Assembly (NCBI GenBank): GCA_012719355.1
Contig: JAAYAM010000043.1
Coordinates: 1-35,352 of the forward strand
DNA length: 35,352 nucleotides
Direction: 5' to 3'
Source: Acidobacteriota bacterium
GTDB taxonomy: Bacteria > Acidobacteriota > UBA6911
Below the pieces are notes generated by a model. That model saw only the letters and a program-made list of their open reading frames with translations, was not told the DNA's origin and did no database searches. Position numbers and translations under genes: made by a program. Every line of letters starts with the position of its first letter. Position 1 is the first letter of the stretch. Positions 2,471-35,267 of the stretch are shown piece after piece.

Positions 2471-4687
2471 ATGACAAACGCTGAATTCGATCTTGCAGAA
2501 CAGTTTGCCCTGTATACCAGGAAAAACTGTTTCATTACCGGGAAAGCTGGGACGGGCAAGACGACCCTGCTGAAACGGATCGTCGGAGAGACGCAGAAGA
2601 ACGCAGTTGTCGTCGCTCCCACGGGCGTGGCCGCGATAAATGCAGGCGGCGTAACGATTCATTCCATGTTCGGACTGCCGCTCACCTGTTTCCTCCCGAC
2701 AGATGACTTCGTGCATCAGAAGCCGGCGACCAACCGCAGAGAACTGCTGGAGCACCACATGCATTTCCGTAAGGACAAGCTTCGTGTGTTCCAGGAACTG
2801 GAGCTTCTCATAATCGACGAGGTGAGCATGGTACGGAGCGATGTGCTCGATGCCGTGGACTTCGTCCTGCGTACTGTCCGGCGGAACAGGAAGCCTTTCG
2901 GCGACGTGCAGGTGCTGTTGTTTGGAGATATGCACCAGCTGCCGCCGGTTGCGAAGGAGCCGGAGTGGGGCTTGATGAAGTCCTACTACCGCAGCCCCTA
3001 CTTCTTCGATTCACTCGTCTGGCCGCAGTTGGATGCCGCCGAAATCGAACTGAAGACGATCTACCGCCAGAGCGATGCCCGCTTCCTGACGCTGCTGAGC
3101 CACATCCGCGAACGCAGGATGGATGCGGAGGATTTCGAGAGACTGCGCGAGCGTTACAATCCCGGATTCAATGGAGCCCGTGAGGGGTATGTTCTTCTCT
3201 CTACGCATAACTACAGGGCCGATAGCGTGAATGAGTCGGAGCTGGCGAGACTGCCCGGCAGGCTCAGTTCATTCGAAGCGGAGATTGAAGGGGAGTTTCC
3301 CGAAAACATGTATCCCTGCGACAGATTGCTGCGGCTGAAAGTCGGGGCGCAGGTGATGTTCATCCGGAACGACACCGAGCAGGGAAGATATTACAACGGC
3401 AAACAGGCGGAGGTGAAAGGGATCGACGGAGACCGGATCACGGTCACATTCAGCGACAGCGGGCGCGACTATCTGCTGCGCCGGGAAAAATGGGAGAACG
3501 TCGAGTACAGCATTGATGAGGAAACCGGCGAACTGGTCAGGGATGAGATCGGTTTTTTCAGCCAGCTCCCATTGCGGCTGGCGTGGGCGATCACGATCCA
3601 CAAGAGCCAGGGACTTACCTTCGATAGGGTCATCGTCGACGCCGGCCGGTCGTTTGCAGCCGGCCAGGTGTATGTCGCTCTCAGCCGCTGCAGATCCCTG
3701 GAAGGAATCGTGCTGCATTCTCTGATTACTCCGGCCGTTCTGCATGATGATCAGCGAATCAGTGAATTCAGCTCTTCAAACAAGAGGACCGAGAACCTGC
3801 AGGAGTCACTTGTGCTGGAAAAGCGCCAGTACGCCAGGTACCTGCTGCTTCGGCTGTTTACCTTCTCCAGTCTCCAACAGCACCTTCCGGCGTGGCTGGA
3901 ACTGATCAACAAGAAAGACATTCCCGACAAGGATGGAGCCCTTGCCCTGCACGCCCGGATAAGCGGTCAGCTCGACGAGATCAGCTCCACTGCCGGAAGA
4001 TTTCAGAACCAGCTTCAGCGCATCATGGCCGCGATGGAGAAAGATCCTGCGCACCTTGCCCTTCTGAGGGAGCGTTGTGCAAAGGCGATAGAGCATTTCA
4101 CAGGCCGGATTGCCACCGGGATCATCGATCCGGTGACCGACCATATCAATCTGCTCGCCTACAAGAAGAAGATGAAGCGCTACCTGCACCAGGTGCAGCT
4201 TGTCCAGAACGCGTGCTGGGCAAAGATCGAACAGCTATACAAGGCCCGCTTCATGGACGAACAGTTGTACAGTGGCGGCGTAGTGCACAAGAGAGAAGAC
4301 TCTCATCGCGTCGTGAGCTCTGCCACATCCGGCAGGAAGGAAAAGGGGGGCACCTACCGTGATACCCTCGCCCTGCATAGACAGGGGAAGAGCATGGATG
4401 AGATTGCCTCTATCCGGGGGCTCACGTTGAGCACCATAATTGATCATGTCTCCAGGCTGATCCTGCAGGGGGAGATCGAAGTGAGAGATATCCTTCCTGC
4501 TGAAACCATCAACGCCATTATGGCGTTCCTCAAGGAGCAGGATAAGGGGAATGCCGGCCTTACGGAAATCCGGATCGCGCTGGACAACAGATACGAGTTT
4601 GCAGATATAAAACTGGTCAGAAGCCATTTCCAGCGCGTGGCCGTAAAGAATCCCGAAGCCGGCAAAAGTGCTTTCGCAGCAGAATAA
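2471..4687 (+). CDS. PIF1/RecD-like superfamily 1 helicase with C-terminal HTH_40 domain
   Basis: The 738-residue protein opens with a Walker A motif GKAGTGKTT (24-32), continues with APTGVAAINAGG and has Walker B LLIIDEVSMV near 112-120. Near 374 it carries TIHKSQGLTFD, the motif VI region typical of PIF1/RecD-type DNA helicases. About 200 residues of mostly helical linker follow. The last ~110 residues (HRQGKSMDEIASIRGLTLSTI...GEIEV) match the helix-turn-helix domain (HTH_40) found at the end of RecQ-like and PIF1-like bacterial helicases. It is expected to be a cytoplasmic ATP-dependent 5'-3' helicase in DNA repair or recombination. It follows the NorR gene by 60 nt with only a weak AAGG ribosome-binding site. 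Its biological substrate is unknown. Confidence 0.85.
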   Translation: MTNAEFDLAEQFALYTRKNCFITGKAGTGKTTLLKRIVGETQKNAVVVAPTGVAAINAGGVTIHSMFGLPLTCFLPTDDFVHQKPATNRRELLEHHMHFRKDKLRVFQELELLIIDEVSMVRSDVLDAVDFVLRTVRRNRKPFGDVQVLLFGDMHQLPPVAKEPEWGLMKSYYRSPYFFDSLVWPQLDAAEIELKTIYRQSDARFLTLLSHIRERRMDAEDFERLRERYNPGFNGAREGYVLLSTHNYRADSVNESELARLPGRLSSFEAEIEGEFPENMYPCDRLLRLKVGAQVMFIRNDTEQGRYYNGKQAEVKGIDGDRITVTFSDSGRDYLLRREKWENVEYSIDEETGELVRDEIGFFSQLPLRLAWAITIHKSQGLTFDRVIVDAGRSFAAGQVYVALSRCRSLEGIVLHSLITPAVLHDDQRISEFSSSNKRTENLQESLVLEKRQYARYLLLRLFTFSSLQQHLPAWLELINKKDIPDKDGALALHARISGQLDEISSTAGRFQNQLQRIMAAMEKDPAHLALLRERCAKAIEHFTGRIATGIIDPVTDHINLLAYKKKMKRYLHQVQLVQNACWAKIEQLYKARFMDEQLYSGGVVHKREDSHRVVSSATSGRKEKGGTYRDTLALHRQGKSMDEIASIRGLTLSTIIDHVSRLILQGEIEVRDILPAETINAIMAFLKEQDKGNAGLTEIRIALDNRYEFADIKLVRSHFQRVAVKNPEAGKSAFAAE

Positions 4688-29014: not shown

Positions 29015-29048
29015 GCAGATTGCACAGATCTCGATCTGTGCAATCTGC
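29015..29048. terminator. Perfect 15-bp palindromic hairpin between convergent genes
   Basis: GCAGATTGCACAGAT (29015-29029) is followed by the tetraloop CTCG and its exact complement (29034-29048). It lies 16 nt after the selenoprotein gene (minus) and 48 nt after the membrane-protein gene (plus), so it can act as a bidirectional terminator. There is no U-tract. Such long perfect palindromes also occur as dispersed REP-like elements; only one copy is visible here. Confidence 0.6.
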
Positions 29049-29063
29049 GTGATGCCTCGGGAA

Positions 29064-29804
29064 CTAGGGTGCGCCGTACTGAATGATCAGGAAATAACCG
29101 GATTCTCCGGCGTTCTTTGCATCAGAGTCGATGAGTACGTAATCACGCTCTGCTTTTTCGCCTTCCTTCCCTTTGAGTTGAATCTCGACCGTTCTGGTCT
29201 GACCCGCCTCGATCGTGATATTCCCTTCGCTGGCGCCGTCGAAATAAACCGTCTGGCCGTCTTTCGACCTGATGCCGGTGACTGTCAGCGGGAGCGTTCC
29301 TTCATTCTTGATCGCAAATGCCTGCTTCTTACCGGCCGCTCTTTCAGCCCCCTGCAGGGTTACCCTGCGCGGAGTGACAGCTATCTTGGCTGCCGGAGCT
29401 TCCTGAACTTCCCCCTTGATGGTAAAGATTTCGACGTTGACGAAACCGGCTACATTGGTGCTGACTATCGCCTTCTTCTCGAAGGGTCCCGGACGTCCTG
29501 CCGTGTCGTAGGTGAGCTTGAGTTCTGTCTTCTCTTTCGGATCCAATCTATGCTTGCCAAGCATAGCCTCTGTGCACGCTCAATTGGTCCTCAGGCTGGT
29601 GATCTCAACCGGCTCACTCCCGATGTTCTCTATTGTTGTCGTTGCGACGGCAGGTTTGCCTTCAGCGACCGTCCCGAAATCGAATTCGACCGGGGTCGCT
29701 TTCAGGACTTGCTCCTGTGACTGCGAATGTGCCAGCGAGACGGCAAGGGCAAATAGGCACACCGCCGTCAGAGTGGCTGCTTGAACGAATCTGTTTCGTC
29801 TCAT
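29064..29804 (-). CDS. Exported DUF1573-family selenoprotein (Sec at in-frame TGA)
   Basis: Minus-strand reading from ATG 29804 gives a signal peptide (LTAVCLFALAVSLAHS), then a DUF1573-type Ig-like domain. An in-frame TGA (29580-29582) falls at codon 75 and the same frame continues to 29064, giving 246 residues. The context is ITSLRTN-U-ACTEAMLGKHRLDPKEKTELKLTYD. DUF1573 proteins have S-C-G-C-T followed by the PGE-x-x-x-IKVTFD strand exactly here, so Sec replaces the first Cys of C-x-C. Thirteen nucleotides after TGA an 8-bp hairpin CTATGCTT/AAGCATAG with GGC loop fits a bacterial SECIS. A second Ig-like half ends the protein. It is predicted periplasmic and lies last in an operon with a rhodanese and a tetraheme cytochrome. 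The role is probably thiol/selenol redox chemistry. Confidence 0.8.
29548..29566 (-). promoter_or_regulatory. Putative bacterial SECIS element of the DUF1573 selenoprotein
   Basis: In the mRNA sense, CTATGCTT pairs perfectly with AAGCATAG around the loop GGC. The stem starts 13 nt and the loop 21 nt after the TGA codon. A G in the first loop position, short loop and this distance match the known features of bacterial SECIS hairpins bound by SelB. Confidence 0.7.
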
Positions 29805-29834: not shown

Positions 29835-30290
29835 TCACTGTAACGGCGTGCCGTGCACGTATTTTACTTTCTCCTCGAAATTGAATTTGGGATCCTGCTT
29901 TTCGGTGTGGCATTGCCTGCAAAGTTCAGGACCGCCATTCTTGATCATGTCGCTCGTCGGGTCCGCAATATGGTTGCTGCCGGGACCGTGACAGGCCTCG
30001 CACTGGACGCCTGCCATTTCCGGAGTCAGGTCATAATCGATGAATCCGCCATCCTGCTCAAATCCCGTGACATGACACTTCACGCACGCCGGCAGGTTCT
30101 CCTGGCCGGATTTCTTCAGACTGTCGATTGCTTTAGCATGCCGTGTCGTCTGATAACCGGCGCTGATGTCACTGTGACAGGGTTCGCACTGCGTCGCTCC
30201 AACGTAGGATCCCGATTTTTCTGAATACATCAATGGGACATTCAACACCAGCAGCAGTATCGAGATACCGTAAACATTCTTAAGTCTCAT
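29835..30290 (-). CDS. Exported tetraheme cytochrome c (cytochrome c554-like)
   Basis: The 151-residue protein has an N-terminal signal sequence (VYGISILLLVLNVPLMY). It carries four CxxCH heme-attachment sites: CEPCH (35-39), CVKCH (69-73), CEACH (97-101) and CRQCH (124-128). The spacing and the GATQCEPCH and GVQCEACHGPGSNH sequences match the cytochrome c554/multiheme Cys-x-x-Cys-His family in which electrons pass between periplasmic partners. It lies between the rhodanese gene (27 nt upstream) and the DUF1573 selenoprotein gene (30 nt downstream), all co-directional and exported. It probably supplies or accepts electrons for the two neighbours' sulfur or selenium chemistry, which is inference. 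Confidence 0.9.
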   Translation of the reverse strand: MRLKNVYGISILLLVLNVPLMYSEKSGSYVGATQCEPCHSDISAGYQTTRHAKAIDSLKKSGQENLPACVKCHVTGFEQDGGFIDYDLTPEMAGVQCEACHGPGSNHIADPTSDMIKNGGPELCRQCHTEKQDPKFNFEEKVKYVHGTPLQ

Positions 30291-30317: not shown

Positions 30318-30737
30318 CTATTTCTCGATCGGATATCCAGCCTGCTTCCATCCCTTTATCGATGGGTCTTTAAGAATTCTCACGTTTTCATAGCCGAACC
30401 TGACCAACTGGGCCGCCATGTCGGAGCTGTCGGCTTCACCGGGACCACAGTCGCAGTAGGTGACGATCAGCTGATCTTCCGGCAGTGACCAGACGTCCTC
30501 AAGTTCAATCTGAGTCTTGTACGGGAGAGAGATCGCGCCTTTGATGTGTCCGGCCGCATAGATGTCCTTCGGCTGCACATCTATTATCGTTACGGGCGTC
30601 CCTTTGTCCATCATCTCCTTCAGTTCTTCTATGCTGATGCGTGCAATGTCGGCGCCTGACGCAGAGCCGAACAACAGAAGGAAGACTGCTCCTGCAATCG
30701 AAAGAGCGCACAATCCAGACCAACTCTTGCTTCTCAT
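30318..30737 (-). CDS. Exported rhodanese-like domain protein
   Basis: The 139-residue protein has a signal peptide (LCALSIAGAVFLLLFGSASG) and one rhodanese domain: a conserved IDVQPKDIYAAGHIKGAISLP stretch (52-72) and the active-site loop starting TYCDCGPGE. The usual persulfide-carrying Cys is Cys95; a second Cys97 makes a C-x-C pair that could cycle between thiol and disulfide. Rhodaneses transfer sulfane sulfur. AAGGAG lies 5 nt before the ATG. It heads the exported rhodanese-cytochrome-DUF1573 operon, whose promoter must lie in 30738-31327. Confidence 0.9.
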   Translation of the reverse strand: MRSKSWSGLCALSIAGAVFLLLFGSASGADIARISIEELKEMMDKGTPVTIIDVQPKDIYAAGHIKGAISLPYKTQIELEDVWSLPEDQLIVTYCDCGPGEADSSDMAAQLVRFGYENVRILKDPSIKGWKQAGYPIEK

Positions 30738-31171: not shown

Positions 31172-31327
31172 GATAGAGAACTCACCGCATCATACGAAAA
31201 CAAGAAGTTACATCATATCGTTCCATGATGAAACAGATGGCATACAAACAGGGTGTGAATGGTCCTTCGGTCCATGTCGTACACCTCAGCCATGAGGAAC
31301 TTCAGTAGCGAGCAAGGAGGAGAATCT

Positions 31328-33028
31328 ATGTACCGACTGTTGTCCGTTGCGGCTCTGGTGGCTTTCGCCATCCTGGCCGTACACGCACCCTTCGAGACGG
31401 CTGTCGCGAAGGACGCGTCTGAATACCAATATGAGGTATTGAGTCCATGGGCGGAAGTTGATCCCATACCCCTCAGGGGGATTTCCGCCAGGTTAAACAG
31501 CATGGAGGGGAAGAAGATCGGATTGTTCGCAAATTTCAAGCGATCCGCCGTTCCCCAGGCCAATATGGTAGAGAAGAAGCTGAAGACAAAGTTCCCTACC
31601 ATCCAGACGTCGCTGTTCCACTTGAGAGAAGCCAACGTCACCGCGACTGAGACTCCGGAAAAAGACAAGTTTACAGAATGGGTCAAGAGTGTCGACGCGG
31701 TCGTCGCAATGGTGGGCGATTGAGGGTCCTGCACAAAGTTCCTCGCCTACAACGGTGTAGCGGTCGAGGACTTTGGAAAGCCGGTCGTGTTACTGGCTAA
31801 TCGCGGATTCGTGACAGACGCCCATTCTGCGGCGTCAGGTAAAGGTATGCCGGGCGTGAGAGTGGTCGGAACCACCATCGCTTGTGAGTCCACTGTTGAA
31901 GCCGATATCGAGTCCGGTATCGACGGAGCATTGAATGACATCATTGCAGCACTGACGAAACCTCTGACCCAGGAAGAGAAATCTCCTCAGGTCAAGACTG
32001 AAAAAGCTCCCAGAATCGCTTTTAAGGGAACGTATCAGGACGTAAACCAATTCTTCTATCGCAAGGGCTGGGGTGATGGCCTGCCGATCGTTCCTCCGAC
32101 AGAAGCTGCTGTCGCCGAGATGATGACCGGGACGGATCTTCCCGCAAATCACATGGTGGCCAAGCTTATTCCCCGTGGAGGAAAAGCTACCGTAGAGAAG
32201 ATTGCAGTCAACGCAGTCATGGCCGGCGCGCTCCCCACTCACATGCCCCTGATCCTCGCGGCGGTTGACGCACTGGCCGACCCCGCTACCAGGTTTGACA
32301 CCTTTGAAGTCAGTACCGGTTCCTGGGCCCCGTTCTTCCTGATCAACGGTCCAATCCGTAACGAGATCCACATCAACTCAAGCTCCGGCGCCCTCAGTCC
32401 CGGGAACATCGCCAACTCTGCCATCGGACGCGCGGTGGGACTGATCGTCAAGAACATCGGCGGCGCCCGCAAGGGCGTCGAAGATATGGGAACGCTGGGC
32501 AATCCGGGCAAATACTCTCTTGTTCTTGGAGAGAATGAGGAAGAAAGCCCGTGGGATCCCTATCATGTCGGTAAAGGGTACAAGAAAGAGGATAATACCC
32601 TCACAGTCTTCTTCCCGAACCGATATACGATGACTGTTCCTCCGGAGACGAACGCTGAAGGGCTTGCTAAGAGCCTGGCGCGCATGCGGCCGGGTGCACT
32701 TTCGGCCCTGATCGTAATCCCCGATCACGCGAAAATCTTCAAGAGTGAAAGCTGGACCAAGCAACAGGTCAAGGATTTCGTCATCAAGCAGAGTTCCAGT
32801 CCGACCGCCGGCGGCATCATGGGAAGCAACGCCCGGCGAGGTCGCGGCCTGCAGAACGAGGACTTCATGCTCGTCGTTGCCGGAGGTCCGGGAGTATGGC
32901 AGGGGCTGCTGCAAAGTGCAGGCGGCTTCAAGAACAGCTTTGTTACCAGGAAGATCAACCTGCCGAAGAATTGGGACAAGCTTGTCGCGAAATACAAGAA
33001 TCTTGTTCCCAATTACGTTAGGTATTAG
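31328..33028 (+). CDS. Exported UGSC-family selenoprotein with large C-terminal domain (Sec at in-frame TGA)
   Basis: From ATG 31328, behind AAGGAGG, one frame runs to 33028 through a single TGA (31721-31723) at codon 132. The context is AMVGD-U-G-S-C-TKFLAYNGV, the defining U-G-S-C motif of the UGSC family, which is known to contain selenocysteine. The N-terminus is a signal peptide (LLSVAALVAFAILAVHA), so the protein is predicted extracytoplasmic. Residues about 45-215 are the UGSC domain (KKIGLFANFKRSA ... PGVRVVGTTIACEST). Residues about 240-566 form a conserved domain starting FYRKGWGDGLPIVPPTE, which I recognise only as an uncharacterised UGSC-associated region. Total length is 566. A hairpin after the TGA may be its SECIS. 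The function of UGSC proteins is unknown; Sec next to Cys suggests redox chemistry. Confidence 0.85.
31734..31775 (+). promoter_or_regulatory. Putative bacterial SECIS element of the UGSC selenoprotein
   Basis: Beginning 10 nt after the TGA, nested stems CAAAG/CTTTG, TCCTCG/CGAGGA and CTACA/TGTAG stack into one hairpin with small bulges and a 4-nt ACGG loop. The loop starts about 28 nt after the TGA, inside the usual range. The loop lacks the G normally seen in its first two positions, so support is weaker than for the DUF1573 element. Confidence 0.5.
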
Positions 33029-33200: not shown

Positions 33201-35267
33201 ATGACTGGGGGATATGCCGGCAAAATACTGAGAGTGAACCTTACAAGTGGTCAGATCGGTTCTATACCGACTTCGAAGTACGAGGAGTTCGGTGGCGGCT
33301 ATGGTATAGGCGCCGCGATATTCTGGGAACTCTGCGTAGCTCCCGGAACCTGGGACCTGCAGGATGCGTTTGATCCCAGAAACGTCATCACTCTGATGTC
33401 CGGCCCGCTCGCCGCAACCGGCATCTTCTCCGCCGGACGCACCAGTGTTTCGGGCCTGGCCCCCCAGTCCTGGCCAGTCAACTGGTTTTCTCACAGCAAC
33501 TTCGGCGGCAGCTTCTCTCCCAGTCTGAAACTTGCCGGATGGGATGGCATCGTCATCGAGGGCAAAGCCAGTTCTCCTGTGTACATAAACATCGTTGACG
33601 ATGCGGTGACACTTGAAGACGCAAAGCCGCTGTGGGGCCTCTCTACCTGGGACACACAGGAAGAAATCTGGAAGATACTGAGCTCCAGGGCCTCAGTCAG
33701 ATATGGAAGCGAATGGCAGAAGCTGGGAGGTGGCTACACCATTCAGCGGCCCGCGATTGTCACCATCGGTCCGGCGGGCGAAAACAGATCTCGTATCGCT
33801 TCTCTGGTACATGGCGGCGGTTCGGGCGCGGGGCAGGGAGGATTCGGCGGTGTCTTCGGCTCCAAGAACCTGAAGGCGATTGCAGTCGTCGGCAGCGGCA
33901 GCGTGAAAGTAGCAGATCCTAGGGCGATCATGGATGTCCGGGAATGGTTTCGTGCCAAAGCCCCCCTCGGAGGGCAGCGTGGGCCCGGCAGGACAATCCA
34001 GGCAGGCGTATCCGGCTGTTTCGGTTGCATTCGCGGGTGTCACTCGAGAAATTCTGTCTATGGCCTTGACTCAGACGGCTGCGCCGAAAGTGTCTGGTTC
34101 AGTGTGCCGCCGCCGTACGAGCGGTCGGCCACGCGGGATCGGCAAAAGGGAGCCGATCTGGCTCAGCAGTTCGGACTCAACGCTTCGGAAATGAGTTACC
34201 AGGGATCGATGAGTTTCCCAAGTCCTCCGGGTCATCCAATTCAACCGACCGTCCCGTCAAAGACGGGAATGGCCTGGTATCTCAAGAAACTGTATGACAT
34301 GGGTGTTATCGGTCCCGGAAAGAACGTGGACACTTACCCGCTTCCGATGGACATTTATGACAGAATGGAATTCGCCGAGATTCTCACCACCGCTATCGCC
34401 AAGCGTATCGGAATCGGAGATCTGCTCGCTGAAGGAACCGTTCGCTTTGCCGAGAAGATCGGAAGAATAAGCGATACGGACGGCATTCTCCGTTTTCCTG
34501 CGTGGGGATATGTGGATCACTGGACGATGCCGACCGTGGAATGGGCTTACGGCACACTGCTCGATTCGCGCGACTGCAACAATCACGACATGCTGCTCAG
34601 CCCTGTCAAGGATATGTCCTGCGAACAATACGTGAAACTGCTTGCCGCCGCTACCCCGCCCCACAGCGATGATCCGTTCATGTTCGATTACAGCTGGAAG
34701 GGTGAGCAGGCGTACAAAACGGGAATCTATTCAGCCCACAAAGCTAAATTCGTGGCCTGGCACCAGCACTACGCGATGTTCTACAAGGAATCGATGCTTC
34801 TGTGTGACTGGGTGTTCGGCAACTCATACAATCCGCTTGCTCCCGACCGTCGCGGCGCCTCGCCGGAAGCCGAGCCGAAATTCATCAGTGCGGTCACCGG
34901 AAAGAAGATCAGTTTTATCGACGGGATTGAAATCGGCAGGAAGATCTGGAATCTGAAGCGGGCCGTCTTTGTGATGCAGGGAAGAAACCGCGACAACGAA
35001 AGATTCTCAGGATATATGTACAAACCGGGAGCATCGAGCGCCCACAACAGCCCTTCCATCCCGGTCTATGATGGTACGAAATGGGATTGGGTGAATTGCA
35101 GCGATCTCTACCTGGATGAAGACGGGTTTGAACGGTGGAAGACAACCTTCTACGAGCTTGAAGGATGGGACCCCAGGAACGGATACCCAAAGCGCGCGAC
35201 TTTGCAGAAGCTCGGGCTGCGTCATGTCGCCGATGTGCTTGAGAGCAGGAACAGGCTTGGTGCATGA
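33201..35267 (+). CDS. Aldehyde:ferredoxin oxidoreductase (AOR) family, tungsten-type
   Basis: The 688-residue protein has the AOR N-terminus (GGYAGKILRVNLTSG, then EFGGGYGIGAAIF), matching the pyranopterin-binding first domain. The [4Fe-4S] cluster Cys are present as C273-x2-C276-x3-C280, with the fourth Cys535 in MLLCDW. The family binds a tungsten (sometimes molybdenum) bis-pyranopterin and oxidises aldehydes or, in variants such as BamB, reduces other substrates, with ferredoxin or a partner as electron carrier. No signal peptide is seen, so it is cytoplasmic, unlike its UGSC neighbour. GGAG lies 10 nt before the start. No ferredoxin-like partner gene lies downstream in the window. The substrate is unknown. 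Confidence 0.9.
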   Translation: MTGGYAGKILRVNLTSGQIGSIPTSKYEEFGGGYGIGAAIFWELCVAPGTWDLQDAFDPRNVITLMSGPLAATGIFSAGRTSVSGLAPQSWPVNWFSHSNFGGSFSPSLKLAGWDGIVIEGKASSPVYINIVDDAVTLEDAKPLWGLSTWDTQEEIWKILSSRASVRYGSEWQKLGGGYTIQRPAIVTIGPAGENRSRIASLVHGGGSGAGQGGFGGVFGSKNLKAIAVVGSGSVKVADPRAIMDVREWFRAKAPLGGQRGPGRTIQAGVSGCFGCIRGCHSRNSVYGLDSDGCAESVWFSVPPPYERSATRDRQKGADLAQQFGLNASEMSYQGSMSFPSPPGHPIQPTVPSKTGMAWYLKKLYDMGVIGPGKNVDTYPLPMDIYDRMEFAEILTTAIAKRIGIGDLLAEGTVRFAEKIGRISDTDGILRFPAWGYVDHWTMPTVEWAYGTLLDSRDCNNHDMLLSPVKDMSCEQYVKLLAAATPPHSDDPFMFDYSWKGEQAYKTGIYSAHKAKFVAWHQHYAMFYKESMLLCDWVFGNSYNPLAPDRRGASPEAEPKFISAVTGKKISFIDGIEIGRKIWNLKRAVFVMQGRNRDNERFSGYMYKPGASSAHNSPSIPVYDGTKWDWVNCSDLYLDEDGFERWKTTFYELEGWDPRNGYPKRATLQKLGLRHVADVLESRNRLGA

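What the first reader, a model, noticed from the sequence alone, without database searches (positions are those of the whole stretch)
29064..29804. DUF1573 protein with selenocysteine in place of the first Cys of C-x-C
Seen: one uninterrupted frame across a single TGA, no indel needed; TGA sits exactly at the conserved Cys of the family motif (TN-U-ACT versus S-C-G-C-T); the sequence after the TGA is typical DUF1573 strand sequence; a perfect 8-bp hairpin with a GGC loop lies 13 nt downstream. Known: Sec usually replaces redox Cys, and bacterial SECIS hairpins lie just after the UGA with a G at the start of the loop. I do not know of a described selenocysteine DUF1573 protein, so this may be a new selenoprotein family and points to redox activity of the DUF1573 C-x-C pair.
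Basis: partly seen in the sequence, partly recalled or inferred. Interest (0 to 1): 0.92.

Follow-up and report, generated by a model that had tools for sequence, protein, structure and literature searches.

The report
Selenocysteine DUF1573 protein in conserved operon
An exported bacterial protein uses the rare amino acid selenocysteine where most of its relatives use cysteine; this type of selenoprotein was first reported in 2007, but here it sits in a conserved gene group with an electron-carrying cytochrome, a sulfur-handling enzyme and a second selenoprotein, a grouping I found no description of.

Summary
One in-frame TGA (29582..29580) falls on the first Cys of the DUF1573 C-x-C motif. 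All TGA-bearing relatives checked, including orthologues from every sampled genome of the genus (51-59% identical), carry TGA at that same column. The reading frame beyond it is under protein-level constraint. A hairpin in fixed register after the TGA covaries, and is more stable than synonymous recoding predicts in Sec genes but not in Cys genes. The genome encodes tRNA-Sec, SelA, SelB and a SelD that itself carries an in-frame TGA. Selenocysteine is therefore by far the best explanation. The claim of a new selenoprotein family is wrong: DUF1573 (OS_HP2, pfam07610, motif UxC) has been listed as a selenoprotein family since 2007-2008. What does look undescribed is (i) this divergent subfamily (57.6 bits against the NCBIfam OS_HP2 cut-off of 100) and (ii) a conserved periplasmic module: rhodanese, tetrahaem cytochrome c, DUF1573-Sec and the selenoprotein UGSC. 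It is found across this Acidobacteriota genus and, co-oriented, in a Nitrospiraceae genome. Proposed role: a Sec/Cys pair passing electrons between the cytochrome and a sulfane-sulfur (or similar) substrate. That role is inferred from anatomy only.

The parts
29064..29804 (-). DUF1573 selenoprotein gene, 246 codons, TGA at codon 75 read as Sec; signal-peptide-like N-terminus and two Ig-like domains
   Evidence: GGAG ribosome-binding-like stretch before the ATG
29580..29582 (-). In-frame TGA (Sec codon), first position of the U-x-C motif
29548..29566 (-). SECIS-like hairpin, 8-bp stem, loop GGC, 13 nt after the TGA
   Evidence: covariation, synonymous-recoding test, same register in the Nitrospiraceae copy
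29835..30290 (-). Exported tetrahaem cytochrome c (PF13435), upstream in the same operon, 30-nt gap
30318..30737 (-). Exported rhodanese, Cys form (YCDCGPGE), first gene of the operon, 27-nt gap to the cytochrome
31259..33028 (+). UGSC-family selenoprotein gene, TGA at 31721-31723 (motif VGD-U-GSC), divergent from the operon; start may be the ATG at 31328

Best explanation
The gene encodes an exported two-domain DUF1573 (Ig/ASH-like) protein in which UGA at codon 75 is decoded as selenocysteine by the cell's SelA/SelB/SelD/tRNA-Sec system, directed by the hairpin just downstream. U75 and C77 form a U-x-C pair on a turn of the first Ig-like domain; the most likely chemistry is a reversible selenenylsulfide. 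The gene is the third of a tight rhodanese, tetrahaem cytochrome c, DUF1573-Sec operon, with the selenoprotein UGSC divergent beside it. I propose a periplasmic electron relay: the cytochrome exchanges electrons with the U-x-C pair, which reduces or releases sulfane sulfur (or a comparable chalcogen or oxidised-thiol substrate) handled by the rhodanese and UGSC. Shown by sequence: the U/C column, hairpin covariation, Sec machinery, conserved gene module. Inferred: export, selenenylsulfide formation, electron flow, substrate. My probabilities: about 0.95 for Sec insertion, 0.7 for a redox (not merely metal-binding) role, 0.3 for the specific sulfur-relay picture. The confidence given below is for Sec insertion at this codon.
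For: TGA always at the first Cys column of C-x-C in TGA-bearing relatives; orthologues in all nine other sampled genomes of the genus keep it at 51-59% identity. Frame after the TGA shows third-position excess of changes. Hairpin: 23 Sec genes mean z -1.99 against 43 Cys genes -0.39, p=1e-6; 6 of 8 pairs with two-sided changes, 18 cells against 4.5 in shuffles. tRNA-Sec(TCA), SelA, SelB, and SelD with its own in-frame TGA. selA in 21 of 24 genomes with a TGA copy against 12 of 35 with only Cys copies seen. Module conserved in the genus and in a Nitrospiraceae genome.
Against: No protein-level evidence. The window's own hairpin is not exceptional given its amino acids. Three draft genomes with a TGA copy lack a detected selA. 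Substrate and electron partner rest on gene neighbourhood only; C-x-C pairs can also be metal ligands.
Confidence: 0.95

Rival explanations
1. The TGA is a real stop: a pseudogene, or two separate ORFs with the second re-initiating at the ATG of MLGKH (the 166-aa ORF that a gene finder would call).
For: An ATG-started ORF 29564..29064 exists.
Against: The split would cut through one Ig-like domain. The TGA is kept at one column in many species and the Met is replaced by Val or Thr in orthologues. Sequence after the TGA is conserved at the protein level.
Confidence: 0.02
2. The U-x-C pair is a soft-metal or metalloid binding site (Hg, Cu, As or the like), not an electron-transfer pair.
For: A roughly CxC geometry with Se suits soft metals; the 2026 review discusses metal-binding roles for some selenoproteins.
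Against: Conserved operon with a tetrahaem cytochrome and a rhodanese points to redox chemistry; none of the neighbours I scanned was a metal transporter or metal regulator.
Confidence: 0.2
3. UGA is generally reassigned in this organism (for example to Trp or Gly).
For: One in-frame TGA taken alone could suggest it.
Against: The TGA aligns with Cys, not Trp or Gly. Other genes of the window read as single long ORFs under table 11 and some end in TGA. A complete Sec system is present.
Confidence: 0.005
4. Sequencing or assembly error turning TGC or TGT into TGA.
For: Draft metagenome assembly in 377 contigs.
Against: Same TGA in independently assembled genomes from several habitats, including another phylum.
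Confidence: 0.002

Closest known systems
OS_HP2 / DUF1573 selenoprotein family (Zhang and Gladyshev 2007-2008; PF07610; NCBIfam NF041425)
   Same: Same Pfam domain, Sec at the first position of the U-x-C motif, Cys homologues common
   Different: 57.6 bits against the NF041425 cut-off of 100; motif U-A-C in the window and several orthologues instead of U-G-C; linked to rhodanese, cytochrome c and UGSC genes
UGSC selenoprotein family (PF24696, NF041046)
   Same: The neighbouring gene 31259-33028 is a UGSC-Sec protein (PF24696, 78.4 bits against a cut-off of 25)
   Different: Below the NF041046 cut-off (63.7 against 125) and carries a long extra C-terminal part; a UGSC fusion to a domain 'Unknown_1' was reported in 2008, identity with this part not tested
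Rhodanese-related (seleno)protein, LYCAU type (NF041203, motif CxU)
   Same: The operon rhodanese matches it over nearly its whole length (60.2 bits) and has C-D-C at the motif
   Different: Below the cut-off of 115, and Cys, not Sec, in all copies seen
Tso (three-selenoprotein) and SAO selenoprotein operons
   Same: Several selenoprotein genes of different families side by side, one of them rhodanese-related in Tso
   Different: Different protein families; only a weak TsoB hit for the rhodanese (29.3 bits against 805)
Ig-like ASH/HYDIN/SPD-2 domains; P. gingivalis 2qsv
   Same: Predicted fold and Pfam PF22544 hit
   Different: Those eukaryotic domains are structural scaffolds; no Sec or redox role is claimed for them here

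Membership tests
DUF1573 (PF07610) | Score above the Pfam gathering cut-off | tested here: met
   83.6 bits against 26.1
DUF1573 (PF07610) | C-x-C (or U-x-C) motif in the first domain | tested here: met
   U75-A-C77; the two positions are among the five invariant columns of a 17-sequence family alignment
OS_HP2_seleno (NF041425) | Score above the NCBIfam curated cut-off | tested here: not met
   57.6 bits against 100; other acidobacterial Sec copies also fall short, 62-94 bits
Bacterial selenoprotein | In-frame UGA aligned with Cys of homologues | tested here: met
Bacterial selenoprotein | SECIS hairpin directly after the UGA, with G early in the apical loop | tested here: met
   no dedicated bSECIS program was available
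Bacterial selenoprotein | selA, selB, selC and selD in the genome | tested here: met
Bacterial selenoprotein | Selenium in the protein | not testable with these tools
   needs mass spectrometry or 75Se labelling
Tso selenoprotein operon | Tso-family proteins above their NCBIfam cut-offs in the cluster | tested here: not met
   Among the proteins scanned, only a weak TsoB hit for the rhodanese, 29.3 bits against 805

The most novel reading that the evidence does not exclude
Rhodanese, tetrahaem cytochrome c, DUF1573-Sec and UGSC-Sec form an undescribed periplasmic two-selenoprotein electron-transfer pathway, shared between Acidobacteriota and Nitrospirota, which gives a first functional context for DUF1573 and UGSC selenoproteins, probably in sulfur or chalcogen redox chemistry.
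Probability: 0.45. Interest if true: 0.72.

Novelty: new variant of a known kind. Interest (0 to 1): 0.5.

Why it matters
DUF1573 is a widespread family of unknown function: 198 of 297 sampled genomes of this phylum have a match. Replacement of one motif Cys by Sec on several branches singles out that residue as catalytic-type. The conserved neighbours (tetrahaem cytochrome, rhodanese, UGSC selenoprotein) suggest concrete partners to test for two selenoprotein families listed without a known function. It also warns that standard gene calling truncates this gene and the neighbouring UGSC gene at the UGA.

Tried and rejected
Re-initiation or pseudogene, assembly error and UGA reassignment: rejected. 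New selenoprotein family: rejected on the literature. Original 2007 NAR paper: not held, so its content is cited through later papers. phmmer against PDB sequences gave only weak antibody-chain matches. AF2 of the UGSC neighbour was too poor to use (pLDDT 54). A relatives search centred on the Nitrospiraceae genome was not possible. The operon rhodanese as a third selenoprotein: rejected, it has Cys in every copy. First translations in the wrong strand or frame.

Full report
What is there. The gene is on the minus strand, 29804..29064. Read with TGA=U it is one frame of 246 residues with a single TGA at codon 75 (29582..29580) and the motif RTN-U-A-C-TEA. Pfam calls residues 38-133 one DUF1573 domain with 83.6 bits.

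The TGA is conserved at one column. PF07610 finds two DUF1573 domains in the host genome and both contain one TGA. The second (contig C154) reads HS-U-G-C. All nine other genomes of the genus that were searched carry an orthologue at 51-59% identity (two in one genome), each with one TGA. In about 27 TGA-bearing DUF1573 sequences from this phylum and one Nitrospiraceae genome the TGA is at the first Cys of C-x-C. A DUF1573 tree needs at least 8 U/C changes, 5 of them forced by well-supported branches (few columns and one misregistered row, L086, so approximate).

The downstream part is translated. Against L075, L076 and L077, 56-60% of the differences after the TGA are at third codon positions (46-48% before it). 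The only candidate re-initiation codon near the TGA is not conserved.

SECIS. Stability of nt 12-38 after the motif codon was compared with 400 synonymous recodings per gene. Sec genes (23): mean z -1.99, 74% at p<0.05. Cys genes (43): mean z -0.39, 7%. Mann-Whitney p=1e-6, not corrected for relatedness. The window's own hairpin gives p=0.25, because its residues MLGKH already encode most of it, so it would not have been convincing alone. On an ungapped 13-sequence alignment 6 of 8 pairs show two-sided changes, 18 cells against 4.5 in shuffles, and slid pairings do far worse. The Nitrospiraceae copy has GTGTGCTT-GGA-AAGCACAC in the same register.

Machinery. tRNA-Sec with anticodon TCA, SelB, SelA and SelD with an in-frame TGA in its SG-U-ASK stretch are all in the genome. 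selA was found in 21 of 24 genomes with a TGA copy and 12 of 35 with only Cys copies seen (counts tallied by hand, Fisher p=5e-5, not corrected for relatedness; the match list was truncated and not every TGA copy in these genomes was read, so the split is approximate).

Module. Upstream on the same strand, with gaps of 27 and 30 nt, are a rhodanese (30737..30318) and a tetrahaem cytochrome c (30290..29835). Divergent to them is 31259..33028, a UGSC-family selenoprotein gene with its own TGA. tblastn and HMM searches find the cytochrome and/or the rhodanese next to the DUF1573 gene at the genus loci, and UGSC with Sec near it in several. In a Nitrospiraceae MAG (L113, 40% identity) rhodanese, cytochrome, DUF1573-Sec and UGSC-Sec follow each other on one strand. 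None of the Cys DUF1573 loci returned by the scan of named genomes had this rhodanese or cytochrome. All four window proteins begin with signal-peptide-like stretches (read by eye, no predictor run). The cytochrome keeps four CxxCH motifs and the rhodanese an invariant YCDCGPGE loop. The cytochrome's best NCBIfam match is the C-terminal part of a UshA-like (seleno)protein model.

Host. Named relatives of the orthologue are uncultured Acidobacteria/Acidobacteriota MAGs, so the host is most likely an uncultured acidobacterium; the genome itself is unnamed.

Structure. The AF2 model (mean pLDDT 85) shows two Ig-like sandwiches, with the U-x-C pair (75-77) on the turn between strands 66-73 and 78-82 (the domain reading follows from the Foldseek matches). 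Foldseek matches ASH/HYDIN-type domains and the P. gingivalis structure 2qsv.

Mechanism (inferred). A U-x-C pair on an exported scaffold, operonic with a multihaem cytochrome and a rhodanese, fits a periplasmic electron relay in which Se reacts first and C77 resolves it as a selenenylsulfide. A sulfane-sulfur substrate is my best guess because of the rhodanese, at about 0.3. A soft-metal site is the main rival, at about 0.2.

Known or new. DUF1573 selenoproteins are known: OS_HP2, pfam07610, UxC, in PLoS Genet 2008 Table 2, and in the tables of PMC9312934 and PMC13188914, the former citing NAR 2007. The window protein is a PF07610 member but falls below the NF041425 OS_HP2_seleno cut-off (57.6 against 100), so I file it as a divergent subfamily. 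In the open-access text I could search, I found no description of the four-gene module: DUF1573 occurs in three papers only, and the operon section of PMC13188914 does not name it. Most subscription papers were not searchable.

Noticed in passing
31259-33028 (+), TGA at 31721-31723: A second selenoprotein gene in the window: UGSC family (PF24696), motif VGD-U-GSC, with a long extra C-terminal part; gene finders would split it into two ORFs.
   Followed up: yes
L001:1189-1869 (-), contig C154 of the host genome: A second DUF1573 selenoprotein in the same genome (motif HS-U-GCE), in a different subfamily; SelB is on the same contig.
   Followed up: partly
29015-29048: A near-perfect 34-bp palindrome (16-bp arms, 2-nt centre) just after the DUF1573 stop, found only here in the genome; no T run follows on the gene's strand.
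   Followed up: partly
L073 (genome G113, contig C207): A Cys DUF1573 (motif GTCGCQT) lies beside a divergent UGSC-like gene whose in-frame TGA reads SW-U-GAATS: a second pairing of the two families.
   Followed up: no
L113:7590-8882: In the Nitrospiraceae module the UGSC gene is followed by a gene matching residues 251-511 of the window's UGSC protein, with no Pfam family; that part can apparently stand alone.
   Followed up: no
L055 (genome G122), about 2844-4178 (-): Another distant UGSC-like gene near the module with in-frame TGA in GH-U-SSCSPA.
   Followed up: no
33201-35267 (+): Aldehyde ferredoxin oxidoreductase family gene directly after the UGSC gene; this neighbour was not found next to the module in the named genomes scanned.
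   Followed up: partly
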